NCBI GenBank assembly: GCA_009760855.2
Contig: WPIO01000034.1
Coordinates: 1,565,001-1,629,000, forward strand
Length of the DNA: 64,000 nucleotides
Origin: Cristatella mucedo
Lineage: Eukaryota; Bryozoa; Phylactolaemata; Cristatellidae
Reading direction: 5' to 3'
The translations under genes and the position numbers were made by a program. The notes beneath the pieces were generated by a model. That model was not told the DNA's origin, searched no databases, and saw nothing but the letters and a program-made list of their open reading frames with translations. Shown piece after piece: positions 37,526 to 46,839 of the stretch. Positions within the stretch are counted from its first letter, which is position 1; every line of letters starts with the position of its first letter.

Positions 37526-37939
37526 AAGTATTGATTGTGATGGCCTATCTTTGTATCGTCAGACATCGGGGTAATTTAAGGCTCATGTCCGTGTTGGTAT
37601 CCGTTCCCAAATTGACCCCGACAGACCTTCCTTGAGAGCCAAAGTGTCAAGGTCACTTTTTCACCTTATTACAACGAAGTGAAGTTGATCTTCTGGTCAT
37701 AGCGACATAACCACTGGGCTTCGAGGCAACCGGCCTTCACATTGGCAACAGCTTCCTCCAGACGAATCGTGTCCGAGGTAAGCCTTTCTGGCAGTAGACG
37801 AGTCTCAGCGGATATAGAGACCAAATAGACCAAACTTCAGAAAGGGCGATTTCAGTGCTGGAGTGCGTACCTGCTGGACATGAAAAATGCAACCTGTAAA
37901 TAGTGTGACCAGCTAGTCCAGTTGGTCTGATCTTCTTAC

Positions 37940-38580
37940 TCGTACAATTTCACGACAACGTGCTCAGGCGTTGCGATGCAACGCAGTGAAATTAGCTGCA
38001 ACGGTCCAGGCCAATACCACAATTCACTACAATCTGTCGCAAAATACTGATTTTGATTACATGTTGAAGAGCTCTCTGTTGAAAGTGCACCCATATCATG
38101 TCAACCCATAATGGGCAAATTATCTGGTAATTTTAGCATTCGATCGAAATCTAAGACAACCCGCTGATAATCGACCAGAAACTCGCTTCGTGGAGCATCA
38201 ATTTAGATTGCATATAACGTTTCAATGTGTTTAAAAGCGACCAAAAACTTCATTTGCCATTTCGCTCATTAGTTTTTGCTCGATGCACAGCATGCAGTCG
38301 ACTGCAATGATCAGGGCCTATACCACAACCCATTACTATCCGTCACAAAAACCGGAAATCGGATGCCCGAAGCTCCAGTTTGAATTTTTTTTATAATATA
38401 CCCTGTTCAAAGCGAAACCGTACAATTTCAAGCCACAGCGCACGCTCTTTCTCGGACGATGTACAGCAATCAACCGCATTGGCGACGGCCAAATCGGAAA
38501 TCACCTCAGTAGGAGACAGCCGGTCTGCATTGGCCTTGGCTCGGTGGCGAAGGTTTTGGCACCTTTCTCTTGGATTTGAC
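37940..38580 (-). repeat. Inverted segment of the cryptic 155-185-bp satellite
   Basis: Plus-strand blocks GGTCCAGGCCAATACCACAA (near 38005) and CAGGGCCTATACCACAACCC (near 38311) are reverse complements of the GGATTGCGGTATTGGCCCGG core found at 41.9-46.7 kb. A weaker block lies near 38455. Spacing is about 305 bp (two units) and then about 150 bp. Confidence 0.6.
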
Positions 38581-40402: not shown

Positions 40403-41482
40403 TCCCTTGGTATAGCCGCCATTTTTTGCTAAAGCAAGCTACAGTAGGCTATGGAGAAGGGGTTAATGAAGATCATCTTTAGTCGGGTGGCCCACTTCAG
40501 TTAGCTGCGTTTACACTTTCGGCTTTCCTCCTAAATCGGCATCGATTTTCGTCCGATTTCTCTCTGGTTTGCAGTACTGCGTCACCATAAATAACTACAT
40601 CTTGGGGGAGAAGCCAAGTCGGCCGACTTTAAAAGATGGTGTTTCAAATTTTTTGGCTCCTTAGAACAGCAGATAGCTTAGAACAGCTCTTAGAACAGCA
40701 GATCAATCAAAACCCCGGGGCGTGTCACGTATGCACTGCGGCCAAAATAAAAAAATGGCTGACTCTCACGGGCTCTAGTTCTAGTGAGGCATTCAGAGCA
40801 GGTCTTTGAACAGGGGATGCTTATGCGTTCTAGCCGCAGTCTAAAACTTTATATGCAGAAGACGCCGCAGATCTTTTATGAAATCCGCCAGCAAATGCGT
40901 TACGGCGCACTATGCTTAGCACAGCACACTCACACACTCATAACGGCGAACATTGCTTACCGTTATGCACTTTCCCGTAAAAGCGTTCTTTTAATACGTG
41001 TATACATTTTCTTTATATTCTTTTCATAGTATTCTTATTCTACTCTACAATGGCGACTGCAGCGCGAACTCATCTTCAGCGGGTGAGGGTTGGCGGCTTT
41101 TTGGGCAGCCTCTTTAATGCCAGCCTTTAATCACGCATTAGAGCAGGGCGCTGCGGGCAGGACTAAGTTGGTCATTAAATTTTCCTAAATCAGTATTGTA
41201 AGCGCCATAACTAGAAGGAAAGTTGGCTGCGAGGAAAGTCAACAGTGCAAACGCAGCTTAAGCGCTGAATTAGCTTCTCCACCCGAAACGCGGCCATGTG
41301 TGGCGACATAGTACCACAAACGAGATGGAAAGCGGACCGAAATCGATGCCGATTTAGGAGGAAAGTCGATAGTGCTAAGGCAGTTTATTAGTGCGGGTCA
41401 CCACAATAAAGATTATCTTTGTTCGCTCATTCTCCTTAGCATAGTGCATCTTGCTTTAACAAGAAATGGCGGCCCCTTTTGG
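40403..41482. mobile_element. Foldback / MITE-like DNA element with long terminal inverted repeats
   Basis: The two ends are diverged inverted repeats of at least 150 bp, up to about 220 bp. From outside in, both read GCCGCCATTT, TAAAGCAAG, GGAGAA, AGATNATCTTT, then CTTTCCTCCTAAATCGGCAT followed by CGATTT. No transposase frame is present, so it is non-autonomous. The outermost few bases and target duplication are not clear. Confidence 0.72.
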
Positions 41483-41572: not shown

Positions 41573-41980
41573 GTGAGAGAGTCTGGATCCCGGGACCGAA
41601 GTATCGTCACCCGGCAGCTTCCGCGAACTGATCTTAAAAAGATATCGGCGCTGGCTGATGTTCGCTACGGCCGCTCGAGCTTATATTGTGGGCGTGGCCA
41701 CGCCCTCGATGCTGCTGCGCCCCAGCCGGACTCGCACCACTCCGCCCTGCCAACGGAAGCTCTGAGTAGCGCCTCGTTAGGCGCTGCAGCAGTCGGACAG
41801 CGTCGGTGGACTAAGCAGGATTTAATTGCAGCGGGTCAGCTGCGGTCGCGTGACCCGCTAGTCCTGCAGCGAAGAAACTTTCTGCCTGTGCGTCGGCCTG
41901 TACTCACGTTGCCGTATTTCCCAGGCCGTTGCCTTCGATTGCCGCACATTGCCCTCGCATGTACGTTCAAGATTGGTTGA
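41573..41980 (+). other. 135-codon open frame, probably not coding
   Basis: GC-rich open frame between the foldback element and the satellite. Its last 25 codons lie inside the satellite, there is no recognisable domain, and no splice structure is evident. Listed only so the interval is accounted for. Confidence 0.15.
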
Positions 41981-42374
41981 TAGGATGCGGTTGCACTTTT
42001 ATTACAGCACACTGTTACGCAAGAAAAATGTGATCCTCTCCCGCCAGCTTTGTTTCTAATTGTATTAATAGTTTGCTGTATTGTCTCGGGCAATTGCCGT
42101 CGATTGCCATGGGTTGCCCAAGGTTGAAAGCGAAAAAGGACATCATGTGAGCCGACGGTGAGCGTTATGTAGTTGGATAATTACAAATTCAAACAGCTAA
42201 TTTCCAGAAAATTTGAACCAGATGGCTGCAGAGACCAGACCATTCCCGTCAATTGCCGTGCATTGCCCTCCATTGTGCCTTAGGCGATTGTATAAAAAGA
42301 TTTGGCTGCACTTTTAATGAAGTGTAGGGCAATACGCAAAAAAAATTGGAGCTTCTCTCAGCAACTGTCGGTCC

Positions 42375-42630
42375 ATTGGTAATAATAATAATAAAGCACT
42401 TGATAAAGCGCCCTCAGAGAACTCGATCTCTTTCTAGGCGCTTTACATTTGCTGCAATTTTCTAAGCACTTTACATTAGCTGCAAAGGGAAACGCGATTG
42501 AATGGTGAGTAAAATCATGCTTGATAAACAGCGTGAATAACATGGTTAGGGGTGACATGCACAGGGTCAGTATGCAAATGTGGTTAGTGGCAGCATGCTC
42601 AGTGTCAGCACGTATAAGCACATTTGTAAC
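42375..42630 (-). mobile_element. LINE-B 3' end inserted in the satellite
   Basis: Contains AAAGCGCCCTCAGAGAACTC, GATCTCTTTCTAGGCGCTTT, an internal re-start of CTAAGCACTTTACAT, and AGGGGTGACATGCACAGGGT. An AATAATAATAATAA end precedes it. Confidence 0.82.
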
Positions 42631-43629
42631 TGTCCGTTATGGATTGGCGCATTTCCCCGGTCAATGTCGTCGATTGCCGTGAGTTGCCGTCGATTGAACG
42701 CGAACCATGGGTGAAAATTAGGCGCGCACACAGTTACACGTTACGTGGAATGAGAGTTGCAGTTTATTGCGGCCAATCTTTTCAGTTTTCCTTGGATTTC
42801 GCTATCGGCCCCTACCATTGCCTTTGATCGCCGTGCTTTGTCGACCATAAACAAACAAAGCATCTTGAAAATTCCACGGTTTTACTTTGGACGCAGCGGA
42901 ATTTTATATGTAAAGACAAGTGAGGCTACCGCTCTGCCAATTTCTCTTCAATTTACCGGGAATTGGGGTATTGGCCCAGAACATTGCTGTCAATTGCCGT
43001 TCATCGCTTGCAATTGTACGCTCGCGATTGGTTGAAAGGATTTGAATGCACTTTCAACGCAATGGGCTGTGACGATCTTCCGGCAAGCTGTCGAGCATCT
43101 GTCGTCTGCTCACGTCGAACACTTCGCTCACTGGCTGCTGCAGCTGCGGCTCGAGGCAGACGCAGCCGCAGCTGACTGCCGCCACTAGCACGGCGAAACG
43201 GGTACGAGCAGGCTCAGCGATGTGTGGTGTGTCAGCAGTGCAGCCAGAGGCAGGAGGCGCACGCATCATACAGCGCATGGCATCCGGCTTGGCTGGGCTC
43301 TATCTTGTTCAGACTGGGCGCTTGGGCTGCTGGGAGAAAATGTGGCATGACTTTGCCAGTGCCGGTCGGAGTCGTAGCCTCCTCCCTCATGTCCGCCGAG
43401 GTTTACTTGGTATCTGGAAAGCTGTGTGACATGCCTTGACCACCCAGATGCAGGAATGGCTGGCTGTACTCTCACCGAGTTCATTCTTATATAAAATCGT
43501 ACATCGCCTAACTAAAGGTCAGCTGCTCCAACAGCCTCGTTGACATAGCAGCCGAGGAGTCTTCGTGGCTATCACCCTCTTGCAGCAGACAACAGGATTG
43601 ACTGCTGCAAGAACTCGAGCCCACGACCT

Positions 43630-44040
43630 AATGTAATGTATCTCCATCTGTAACTCCACAAACAAGTGGGTGTTACGCAGGAAAATTTTCTATAGAACAC
43701 TCAAAGCCTAAGCGGGTTTCTTTCCCATACTGTAGCCAATTGACTCCATCTCACACAGCAAATAGAAAGTGAGAAGCAAAGCTGAGTCAACAGGGCAGTC
43801 AAGGAAGTGAGTAGCATGGAAGTAGCAGCCCAGGACGGCTGGAAAAGATGTGCCACAGTCGGCAGCAGGAGAAAACATGTCGTTGTATTTAAGTTGTGGG
43901 AGTGAGCTCCTCCACAGTTAAGGACCGGCAGAGCAAAAGCTTCTGTCGCCAATGGTCTTAAGCGTAGGAATGAAACGGCTAATCGATTGTCCATTGAGGA
44001 CCCGAGAGTTCGAGGATGCTAAAACTGCTGCAAGTCGTAA
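43630..44040 (-). mobile_element. LINE-A 3' end inserted in the satellite region
   Basis: TAATGTAATGTATCTCCATC, GTGGGTGTTACGCAGGAAAA, then the reversed RT tail with several frameshifts; MDNRLAVSFLRL at the far end. A B-box-like GGTCGTGGGCTCGAG on the minus strand abuts it. Confidence 0.8.
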
Positions 44041-44239
44041 AGTTTGAGCACCTTACCCTAGGTTAAGACTAGTGGAGGAGGCATGCGGACTTTAAACCGG
44101 CCTTTTTAACGGTCGACTGTCCCGACTGCCTTTTGGTTTTTTGAGTATACTTGTTACCTGGTGTGTCTATTGTGAAGCCGTCAGTGCCATCTTAAGTATT
44201 TAAAGTAGCCTGCTGGCAGCAGCATGATTGATTCTTCTG

Positions 44240-44244
<5 letters not shown>

Positions 44245-44317
<73 letters not shown>

Positions 44318-44620
44318 CCTCCCTCCCTCCCTCCCTCCCTCCCTCCCTCCCTCCCCCTCCCTCCCTCCCTCCCTCCCTCCCTCCCTCCCTCCCTCCCTCC
44401 CTCCCCTCCTTCCCTCCCTCCCTCCCTCCCTCCCTCCCTCCCTCCCTCTCCCTCCCTCCCTCCCTCTCTCATCCGTCCATCCATCCATCCATCCATCCAT
44501 CCATCCATCCGTCCGTCCGTCCGTCCGTCCGTCCGTCCGTCCGTCCGTCCGTCCGTCCGTCCGTCCGTCCGTCCGTCCGTCCATCCATCCATCCATCCAT
44601 CCATTCATCGATATATCTAT
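44245..44620. repeat. Compound (TC)n-(TCCC)n-(CCAT)n-(CCGT)n-(CCAT)n block
   Basis: About 68 bp of TC, 155 bp of CCCT, 40 bp of CCAT, 70 bp of CCGT and 25 bp of CCAT. It gives long Ser/Pro/Leu and Asp/Gly/Arg repeat open frames that are not genes. Confidence 0.96.
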
Positions 44621-45130
44621 ATTTATCTCTCACTGTTTTTTTATTTTGGCCCAGTCACTTTACAGTGATTTGCGATGGACCATAATGGATTGCCGTATTT
44701 GCCCGAGCCATTGCCGTCTGTTGCCATGCATTCCCCAAGATTGAACGGTCAGAGCTGGTTGAATGGTTTGAAAGTATGTGCTCGAGCAGTGAGATGTTCC
44801 GTGGAATGAGAATTGGATCTTGGTGCAGCCGATCTCTCGTCGATTCGCCACGGATTTTGGTATTGGTCCCTGCCATTGCTGTCGATTGCTATGTATTGTT
44901 GACAATTAATTTGCAAAGTAGCTTGAAAGTCCTACGGTTTCACTTTTAGCACAAAGAAAATGGGAAATGCGATGACAGTCGGCACTTCGTGCAGCCAATT
45001 TAGTGTCAACTTGCCACGGATTGTTGTGGATTGCTGCTTGGAGCCGAGCAGTTGCCGTAGATTGCTGCGCATTGCCCGAGATTGTACGAGCGCAATTGCT
45101 TAAAATGATGTGGTTGACTTTAACCAGTGT

Positions 45131-45399
45131 TTCTTACGCAACGACATCTACTCTCCAACTGCCGACTATGGCACATCTTTTTCAGCGGTCCTGAACTGCT
45201 ACTTCTATGCTACTCACTACCTCAACTGCTCTCCTAACTCTGCTATGCTTCCCACTTTCTCTTTGTTTCGTGAGACGAAGTCTGTTGGCTACCGAATGCG
45301 TACCGAAAGCCGCTTAGGCTGTGAGTGCGCTATACAAAACTCTCCTGCGTAACACCCACATGGCCTTTATGACTTTGTGGAGTTACTGACGGAGGTACA
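45131..45399 (+). mobile_element. LINE-A 3' end with perfect 10-bp target duplication
   Basis: TAACCAGTGT stands immediately before (45121-45130) and after (45400-45409). The insert reads [20 protein letters not shown] and [20 protein letters not shown], then GTAACACCCACA and GGAGGTACA. It is a 5'-truncated insertion of only 269 bp. Confidence 0.92.
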
Positions 45400-46839
45400 T
45401 AACCAGTGTGCTTTGTAACATGCATTAAAAATAGAAGCATTGCGAAACCGATTTCAGGGCACTGTGCATCGGATTGCTGTAGGTTGGGGTGTTGGCCCGG
45501 GATTTTGCATTAAATTGCAATGCATTACTGCCGAATGATCTAGGAAATTGTAGTGAAATTGTGGGATTACATAATAACCAAACATTAGAGCAACATGCAA
45601 ACACTGTTAGAGCTTTAAGTGTACGTATTCTGGTCGTTTTTCGGCGGGTTTCGGTACATTGACATACTGGCACTGGTCCGGCAGTTGCAGTCGATTGCAA
45701 TGCATTGCTACAGAATTGCCGAGGCAAAAACATTGAAGTTATGCGAGTACTCAATAAACAAAGATTAGAGCAGCGTGCAATCATAATTAGAGCTTCTAGT
45801 GTACGCGTTCGGGTCGCTATGTGGCGGATTGCAGCGGATTTCAGCGGATTGAGGTATGGGACCGGGTCATTGCAGTTGATTGAAATTCATTGCATGAGAA
45901 TGCGTGTGCATAATGGAGCGAAATTTTGTGGATGCACTTTGAACTGAGTGTATTCCTATATGCAATGTCAATTAGAGCTTCGCGATGGCGATTTGAGGAT
46001 GGTTTGCAGTGGAATAGAGTGGATTGCGGTATTATTCTAGGTCATTTCATGCGATTGCCACCCATCGCCACAGTGCGAGTTTGCACAATTTTTTTTTATT
46101 TTACGCGATTGTGCACAAAGCACGGTGCACTTTAATGTGCAATGAAAACTGGAGCTCGGCGAAATGTATTTACATTTTTTATGCGGTGGATTCTGTGGAT
46201 TGAAGTGGATTGTGGTGTTGGCCCGGGCTACTACAGCCGATTGCAGCACATTGCACAAGAACGGCCGAGCCAGTACAAGTGAATTTCTTCCTAAATGCGA
46301 TAGTCGCACAGTGTGCTGTCATATGCAATCGAAAATGGAGCTTTTCGATTAGGATTTCTTTCGTTGCATGGTGGAATGCAGTGGATTGCGGTATTGGCCT
46401 GGGCCACTGCAACCTTATTTCACTGGACTTCGTAAGCGTAAGCGTGAGCGGAATCTCTAGATATTTTCTGCGTACATTGTGCCGTATAGCTTAGTTTGAT
46501 ATTCCAAACTTTTTGGAGCTGTTCGCAGCAGATTTGGGCTGGATTTGACGGGAACTAGAATGGATTGCGGTGGATTGAGGTGGATTGAGGTTCAGCGTCA
46601 AAGCTCATTTGCATAAGTTCACTAGCCTAATTAGAGTGGATTTCGGTAATTTATCGAACCCTAACTATTGGCCACTGGTGAGGCATTTACATTAGTGCCG
46701 AGGCGCTTCGCTACTGACAAAGAAGCAGAAGACGCAGGCGAACACTATAGTTGCATTACAATATGCTATTTCGACTCACATCGTGCATTTAGCCCAGCAA
46801 AGCTCAAAAACCACTCTCTGTAATCCTAGTTGCTACCCG

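What the first reader, a model, noticed from the sequence alone, without database searches (positions are those of the whole stretch)
41890..46680. Cryptic, heavily diverged satellite-like array with a unit near 170 bp
Roughly fifteen copies of a core rich in GATTGC, CATTGC and GGCCCGGG recur every 155-185 bp over 4.8 kb. No two copies look alike enough to be flagged by simple repeat masking. The unit size is typical of animal satellites and close to nucleosome length. LINE-A, LINE-B and a compound microsatellite have inserted since, so it is old. It could be a fossil satellite block or a sequence kept for nucleosome phasing.
Basis: seen in the sequence. Interest (0 to 1): 0.7.

Follow-up and report, generated by a model that had tools for sequence, protein, structure and literature searches.

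The report
Foldback transposon arm built of repeats
The hidden 180-base repeat array is real, but it is one arm of a jumping-gene family scattered through this genome as ready-made blocks, rather than a local satellite block or a nucleosome-positioning sequence.

Summary
The periodicity is real: 6-mer pairs at 155-185 bp are 3.3 times the shuffled expectation (z 9.6, 0 of 300 shuffles). The satellite-block reading fails. Window 41909-46661 is one copy of an interspersed element; at unlinked sites the same ~15-16 non-identical units recur in the same order. In 23 arms, units at the same position in different copies are 88.5% identical (n=2857), units at different positions in one copy 64.5% (n=1634). 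Other copies show a sharp outer end (GTAATTCGTCGAACCC; 240 exact genome-wide, 0 for the reversed control), often an inverted partner arm of variable length, and 9-bp target-site duplications (51 of 108 bases match at length 9, 0 of 5000 flank permutations as high). This is the anatomy of a non-autonomous foldback transposon, probably Mutator-like, closest in form to Tetris, Tm1 and Galileo. The window copy shows no left arm of its own and carries three later insertions and a ~114-bp deletion. No transposase could be tied to the family, so the superfamily is inferred; repeats as transposase-binding arrays is inference from Galileo. A new family of a known kind; moderate interest.

The parts
41909..46661 (+). 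One arm (inner end at 41909, outer end at 46661) of an interspersed foldback-type element; ~2.68 kb by arithmetic once the three insertions are left out
   Evidence: All 39 other full rows start 10-18 bases into a query that began at 41900; right end shared by other copies
46639..46661 (-). Outer terminus (GGGTTCGA..AATTACCG..), which complete copies carry in inverted orientation at both ends
   Evidence: 3 mismatches to the terminal 23-mer, only match in the window, 0 in 100 shuffles; 240 exact 16-mer termini genome-wide
41909..42382 (+). Array piece 1 (units at 41920-42064, 42087-42232, 42235-42376)
   Evidence: HMM hits; 88% to copy L017
42383..42620 (+). Later insertion 1 (~238 bp dispersed repeat)
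   Evidence: 21 of 29 other copies run across without it; related repeats in many fetched loci
42621..43073 (+). Array piece 2 (units 42655-42798, 42815-42970, 42975-43073)
   Evidence: HMM hits; aligned in other copies
43074..44638 (.). Later insertion 2 (1.57 kb; holds dispersed-repeat sequence and the TCTC/TCCG compound microsatellite 44244-44602)
   Evidence: 21 of 29 other copies run across without it; TRF
44639..45130 (+). Array piece 3 (units 44646-44697, 44701-44862, 44867-45036, 45044-45130)
   Evidence: HMM hits; up to 91% to other copies
45131..45399 (.). Later insertion 3 (269 bp), flanked by the 10-bp direct repeat TAACCAGTGT
   Evidence: 26 of 29 other copies run across without it; 93.8-96.6% identical matches to the insert in four fetched loci, two of them one duplicated site; flanks
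45400..46618 (+). Array piece 4, the longest uninterrupted run (units 45390-45490, 45495-45662, 45678-45840, 45861-46031, 46038-46206, 46221-46393, 46397-46571)
   Evidence: HMM hits; 82-86% identity of 45660-46540 to 39 other places
46618..46619 (.). Junction of a ~114-bp deletion seen in the window copy; 46619-46661 is the terminal stretch
   Evidence: Other copies carry a further stretch here before GTCGTTGC..GTAATTCGTCGAACCC
37938..38483 (-). About four units of the same repeat kind in inverted orientation; a much older relative, probably not this copy's other arm
   Evidence: HMM hits E 0.004 to 1e-19; ~60% over 618 gapped columns to family A and to the divergent copy B, 70-82% over stretches of about 135 bp or less (29-bp matches at 93%), against mostly 80-91% for the right arm

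Best explanation
The array is one arm of a non-autonomous foldback DNA transposon, probably mobilised by a Mutator-like (MULE) transposase. A ~175-bp unit was amplified inside the terminal inverted repeats of an ancestral element until an arm held ~15-16 units, which diverged to ~64% identity. The finished arm was later spread by cut-and-paste transposition, so the copies carry the same ordered set of units. SHOWN: dispersal, collinearity, common termini, inverted arms of unequal length, 9-bp target duplications as a group statistic. INFERRED: the MULE enzyme, the order of events in the ancestor, and that the repeated core (GCCCGGGCCATTGCNGTCGATTGCCGTGCATTGC in the unit consensus) supplies many transposase-binding sites, as footprinted for Galileo. 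The window copy shows no left arm or left terminus and is most likely a dead relic.
For: Dispersed collinear copies: 39 other places at 82-86% (40 of 1419 candidates scored) and 39 at 85-90% for the inner end (40 of 811 scored). Unit statistics. Common outer end: 28 of 29 loci share the last ~170 bp and then part; 21 of 27 aligned ends contain GAACC; 240 exact 16-mer termini against 0 for the reversed pattern. Inverted partner arm ending in the same terminus in 4 of 8 left flanks examined (C199, C133, C665, C46) and in complete elements spanning 2.75-6.5 kb. 9-bp duplications over 12 pairs. 59 MULE transposase-domain matches in this genome against 3 for the Merlin domain.
Against: 4 of the 8 left flanks examined show no inverted arm (C177, C11, C221, C139), though two of these partly read N. 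Single 9-bp matches are imperfect (5-8 of 9 in six pairs); L073, C188 and C665 show 1-3 of 9, C332b has palindromic flanks (2 of 9, kept in the count), and L071 and L080 match only after shifting by a G run or one base. No MULE domain lies within 5 kb of the 200 listed of 240 termini; the nearest is 7.8 kb away on C475, about what chance gives. The window copy has no left terminus and no recognisable duplication. 9 of 26 ORFs of L073 were scanned and no transposase found. No binding experiment exists.
Confidence: 0.88

Rival explanations
1. Fossil satellite block: a locally amplified satellite array that decayed in place and was later broken by insertions.
For: Tandem ~175-bp units, strong divergence, later insertions.
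Against: The same ordered units, 82-90% identical, lie at dozens of unlinked places with common ends. Units match their positional counterparts elsewhere best. No run of more than two among the 100 listed core matches; 352 matches were not listed.
Confidence: 0.05
2. A sequence kept at this locus for nucleosome phasing.
For: Unit near nucleosome length; weak 10-bp AA/TT/TA periodicity in the arm of another copy (1.80 against 0.93 in shuffles, 5 of 300 reach it).
Against: The window copy is about as diverged from other copies as they are from one another (85-91% per unit against a mean of 88.5%) and is cut by three insertions and a deletion; the period is shared by copies elsewhere.
Confidence: 0.03
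3. Same foldback anatomy but moved by another transposase: Merlin (8-9 bp duplications and terminal GG, passages of PMC8101967) or a P-type enzyme as in Galileo.
For: Termini begin GGG and duplications are 9 bp, which fits Merlin too; Galileo shows that the foldback form arose outside Mutator (abstract of PMC3688188).
Against: Only 3 Merlin-domain matches, all on one contig, against 59 MULE matches. Galileo is flanked by 7-bp duplications (passages of PMC3573991), not 9. P-type transposases were not searched for.
Confidence: 0.2
4. Segmental duplication or retrotransposition of a non-coding block rather than DNA transposition.
For: The divergent B copies (C26, C80, C186, C568) do lie in large duplicated segments, up to 99% identical.
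Against: Family A flanks are mostly unmatched beyond the ends, complete copies carry the same inverted terminus at both ends, and 9 bp are duplicated.
Confidence: 0.03

Closest known systems
Tetris (Drosophila virilis foldback element with TIR-220 repeats), PMC4079207; abstract, Results part 1 and Discussion part 1 read
   Same: Non-autonomous, long inverted arms holding ~220-bp tandem repeats, 8-10 bp duplications, many rearranged forms, a short MITE-like derivative (DAIBAM); authors suggest Mutator.
   Different: Tetris repeats are homogeneous (87% inside complete elements, 94% elsewhere), few per arm, and grew into satellite arrays. Here ~15-16 units per arm at ~64%, fixed in order, with no satellite growth of the ~175-bp unit seen in the part examined. 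No sequence relation tested.
Tm1 (Meloidogyne Mutator/Foldback family), PMC3169594; abstract and passages seen
   Same: Composite inverted termini of variable length with internal repeats, duplications of 8-10 bp, mostly 9 (45 of 53 elements), MITE-like members.
   Different: Tm1 has members coding a Phantom-like transposase; none tied to this family here.
Galileo (Drosophila), PMC3688188 abstract and PMC3573991 passages
   Same: Long internally repetitive inverted arms of unequal length, ~210-bp internal repeats; transposase-binding sites inside the repeats; chimeric copies without matching duplications.
   Different: P superfamily, 7-bp duplications; here 9 bp.
Drosophila FB and sea urchin TU foldback elements (largely recalled; foldbacks of D. 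melanogaster and sea urchin are mentioned in PMC4079207, the name TU is from memory)
   Same: Inverted arms made of short tandem repeats, including a 10-bp repeat near the end in FB (recalled).
   Different: Sequence relation not testable with the collections on hand.

Membership tests
Foldback DNA transposons (structural class) | Long terminal inverted repeats | tested here: met
   Self-inverted matches of 80-99% over 0.2-0.9 kb in 5 of 6 complete elements (in L070 partly a recent inverted duplication that includes flank); L072 has one full arm and only a short opposite terminus; 15 or more unit hits on each side of L073
Foldback DNA transposons (structural class) | Arms composed of tandem sub-repeats | tested here: met
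   15 units tile one arm almost end to end; units in opposite orientation on the two sides in L068-L071 and L073
Foldback DNA transposons (structural class) | Target-site duplication on insertion | tested here: met
   9 bp: 51 of 108 against at most 33% at lengths 4-8 and 10-15; 0 of 5000 flank permutations as high; 12 pairs, all counted, duplication not visible in 3 and flanks palindromic in 1
Mutator/MULE superfamily | Duplications of about 8-11 bp, mostly 9 (range recalled) | tested here: met
   not exclusive to MULEs (Merlin also 8-9)
Mutator/MULE superfamily | Element or partner codes a MULE transposase | tested here: inconclusive
   59 MULE domain matches in the genome, none within 5 kb of 200 of the 240 exact termini; none in 9 of 26 ORFs of L073
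Merlin superfamily | DDE_Tnp_IS1595 transposase linked to the termini | tested here: inconclusive
   3 matches, all on C3, a contig without any of the 200 listed termini (40 termini not listed)
Satellite DNA | Long, locally homogenised tandem arrays | tested here: not met
   Units in a copy 64.5% identical, same position between copies 88.5%; none of 284 units matches its own copy best
Tetris / Tm1 / FB sequence families | Sequence similarity of termini or units | not testable with these tools
   No eukaryotic repeat library on hand

The most novel reading that the evidence does not exclude
The arm is a selected, deliberately non-homogeneous array of ~15 transposase-binding sites. Divergence of units to ~64% would keep both arms readable by the enzyme while limiting slippage and hairpin loss, so the element travels with a frozen satellite. 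Its terminal 10-bp sub-repeat can seed new minisatellites (59 copies in L073).
Probability: 0.15. Interest if true: 0.55.

Novelty: new member of a known kind. Interest (0 to 1): 0.36.

Why it matters
A cryptic ~175-bp periodic array would easily be filed as a dead satellite or a nucleosome-phasing sequence. Here it is shown to be a transposon arm whose unit order is the same in many copies. It gives a case opposite to Tetris: a foldback element that carried ~15 units without homogenising them or, in the part examined, spilling the ~175-bp unit into satellite DNA. Comparing the two makes the question of when transposons turn into satellites testable. Repeat annotators of this genome gain a family of perhaps hundreds of copies (rough estimate).

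Tried and rejected
Satellite block in place, nucleosome phasing, segmental duplication, retroelement 3' tail: set aside for reasons given under rivals. For a while I took the fixed 3' end with variable 5' extent as a sign of a 5'-truncated retroelement, until one search showed inverted arm pieces upstream. I also took 37938-38483 for the other arm of the window copy; (about 60% identity) speaks against that.

Helitron and P-type ends were considered only by eye (recalled motifs); P-type transposases were not searched. The CzcE match lies in a translation of the 10-bp minisatellite and was dropped. The C475 MULE match 7.8 kb from a terminus was not followed after (fragment of 140 aa; by my own arithmetic about 0.3 such pairs expected by chance). 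A genome-wide count of the 10-bp minisatellite was asked four times and never answered.

Rows left out: L034 and L043 from the end alignment. For duplications, C199 (right end degraded) and C133 and C46 (right end not found in the fetched stretch) were not scored; for C77 (L070) the outer of two left termini was used. L016 is the window copy itself and was left out of comparisons. The unit statistics used 23 arms chosen from those fetched (the window, 21 other loci, L073 with both arms), not every copy. Pfam was run on 10 window ORFs without a match.
Full report
CHECK OF THE OBSERVATION. TRF lists no ~170-bp array in 41.9-46.7 kb, so only a weak-similarity test can show it. Units of the C221 copy aligned in pairs score 95.8 against 48.6 +/- 1.4 for shuffled units; this test was not run on the window's own units. 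A 15-unit profile built from the C221 copy marks 17 units or part-units on + between 41920 and 46571 and four on - at 37938-38483, and nothing else in 64 kb below E 0.05; the reversed window gives E 2.8 at best. Exact GGCCCGGG occurs only twice in the array.

IT IS A DISPERSED ELEMENT. A search with 45660-46540 scored 40 of 1419 first-look candidates: the window itself and 39 other places, nearly all matched over most of the 881 bases, at 82-86% identity. The inner part 41900-42360 behaves the same (40 of 811 scored): 39 other places at 85-90%, every one starting 10 to 18 bases into the query, which puts the inner edge at ~41909. In 29 fetched copies the alignment follows the window array in order, as far as the fetched stretches reach, and skips three stretches of the window: 42383-42620 (21 of 29 copies run across without it), 43074-44638 (21 of 29) and 45131-45399 (26 of 29); the rest do not reach or are rearranged there (the latter with tolerances of up to 60 bases). 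These are therefore later insertions. The last is flanked by TAACCAGTGT on both sides. Other copies continue past 46618 for ~160 bp and stop sharply: 28 of 29 share this stretch, then the flanks are mostly unmatched. Aligned ends finish in ..GTAATTCGTCGAACCC or close to it; 21 of 27 contain GAACC. The window copy lacks ~114 bp of this stretch but keeps the terminus at 46639-46661.

UNIT ORDER IS FIXED AND UNITS ARE NOT HOMOGENISED. In 23 arms chosen from those fetched (the window and 21 other loci, L073 with both arms), units at different positions in one copy are 64.5% identical (n=1634), units at the same position in different copies 88.5% (n=2857), and different positions in different copies 64.2% (n=4046, a subset of pairs). 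283 of 284 units match best at the same position in another copy, none inside its own copy. Caveat: units were taken from collinear alignments above 76% identity, which favours this outcome; the low within-copy identity does not depend on it. So the array most likely arose and diverged first and was spread later as a block. The ten window units that could be mapped are 85-91% identical to their counterparts.

FOLDBACK ANATOMY. Upstream of the inner edge, 4 of 8 examined flanks (C199, C133, C665, C46) hold an inverted, usually shorter arm that ends in the same terminus, separated from the right arm by a spacer; 4 (C177, C11, C221, C139) do not show it, two of them partly reading N. The 16-bp terminus occurs 240 times exactly, 117 + and 123 -, against 0 for the pattern read backwards; 200 of the 240 places were listed. 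Convergent pairs gave complete elements: C42, C54, C77, C95, C144 and C44, spanning 2.75-6.5 kb, plus a 0.49-kb miniature (L080) and the ends of C188, C332 (two) and C570. L073 (C44) has two long arms of tandem units in opposite orientation (19 and 15 unit hits); L072 has one full arm and only a short terminus on the other side; the rest lie between. Within L073 the matched stretches of the two arms are 81-86% identical apart from one of 97%, about as different as arms of different elements.

TARGET DUPLICATION. Over 12 pairs of flanks, matching of left-end and right-end bases peaks at length 9 (51 of 108, 47%) against 25-33% at lengths 4-8 and 10-15; pairing flanks of different elements gives 28 on average, 44 at most, in 5000 permutations. 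Single pairs, unshifted: 8/9 (C332a), 7/9 (L068, L070), 6/9 (L069, L072), 5/9 (C570, more with one indel), 4/9 (L071), 3/9 (C665), 2/9 (C332b, palindromic flanks), 1/9 (L073, L080, C188). By eye L071 reads 9/9 once a run of G is skipped and L080 9/9 after a one-base shift. Imperfection fits old copies; missing duplications resemble the chimeric copies described for Galileo (PMC3573991, passages).

TRANSPOSASE. 9-bp duplications point to Mutator-like elements, where most foldbacks seem to belong according to the Tetris authors (PMC4079207, Discussion part 1). Merlin also has terminal GG and 8-9 bp duplications (PMC8101967, passages). The genome has 59 MULE-domain matches and 3 Merlin-domain matches. 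No MULE match lies within 5 kb of a listed terminus (200 of 240 termini), and 9 of the 26 ORFs of L073 that were scanned show no transposase. The enzyme therefore remains inferred: about 0.7 MULE, 0.2 other, by my judgement.

MECHANISM. Shown: copies at many sites with common ends and, as a group, 9-bp duplications. Inferred: a MULE transposase supplied in trans binds the termini. In the unit consensus 57 of 172 columns are at least 80% conserved, many in GCCCGGGCCATTGC-GTC-GATTGC...CATTGC and around TGCAATAAAAATTGGAGCTT, which could be repeated binding sites, as found in Galileo (PMC3688188 abstract). I did not test these columns against a neutral model. The 10-bp repeat GGATTGCGGT next to the terminus varies from 0 to 4 copies in 27 ends by a simple pattern count and reaches 59 copies in L073.

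COPY NUMBER (rough, my arithmetic). Copies differ by ~11.5%, so if the termini evolve neutrally an exact 16-mer survives in roughly a third to two fifths; 240 exact termini suggest ~600 termini, hence some 300-600 elements and on the order of 0.3% of the genome.

WHAT IS KNOWN. The kind is known: Tetris, Tm1 and Galileo came up in searches of the held library. In those listings and in the abstracts and passages I read I saw no foldback with ~15 units of ~64% identity per arm; most listed papers were not opened, and subscription papers and repeat libraries were not searchable. Novelty is therefore a new family of a known kind, pending Dfam/Repbase.

Noticed in passing
window 37938-38483 (-): Four units or part-units of the same repeat kind in inverted orientation, only ~60% identical to family A or B: a much older relative.
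   Followed up: partly
L005-L015 (C26, C80, C186, C568): Large duplicated segments, about 82-99% identical piece by piece over many kb, carrying a ~75% divergent copy (B) of the arm.
   Followed up: partly
L073:76-675: 59-copy, 96% matching 10-bp minisatellite (ACCGCAATCC) next to the element's terminus, same unit as the terminal sub-repeat.
   Followed up: partly
window 45131-45399; rc relative at 43633-43885: A dispersed 269-bp repeat with 93.8-96.6% identical matches in four fetched loci (two of them one duplicated site) and a 10-bp direct repeat at its ends: likely a fairly recent non-autonomous element.
   Followed up: partly
L080: 0.49-kb miniature element with the family's termini and about two units; a 9-bp duplication (TGAGCGTTC) is visible after a one-base shift.
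   Followed up: yes
L070; L078/L079 (C332): Element ends inside longer palindromes that include flanking DNA (99.5% in L070): recent inverted duplications at foldback ends.
   Followed up: no
L057:399-3400: Retrotransposon frames (RT, RNase H by Pfam; called Gypsy-type from memory, second frame not scanned) between pieces of the left arm of the C46 copy.
   Followed up: no
G000:C475 2700212 and 2708029: A MULE domain fragment 7.8 kb from a right terminus; the nearest such pair, not beyond chance.
   Followed up: no
window 40415-40587 and 41301-41473: Inverted repeat of 175 columns, 76.6% identical, like the ends of another short inverted-repeat element.
   Followed up: partly
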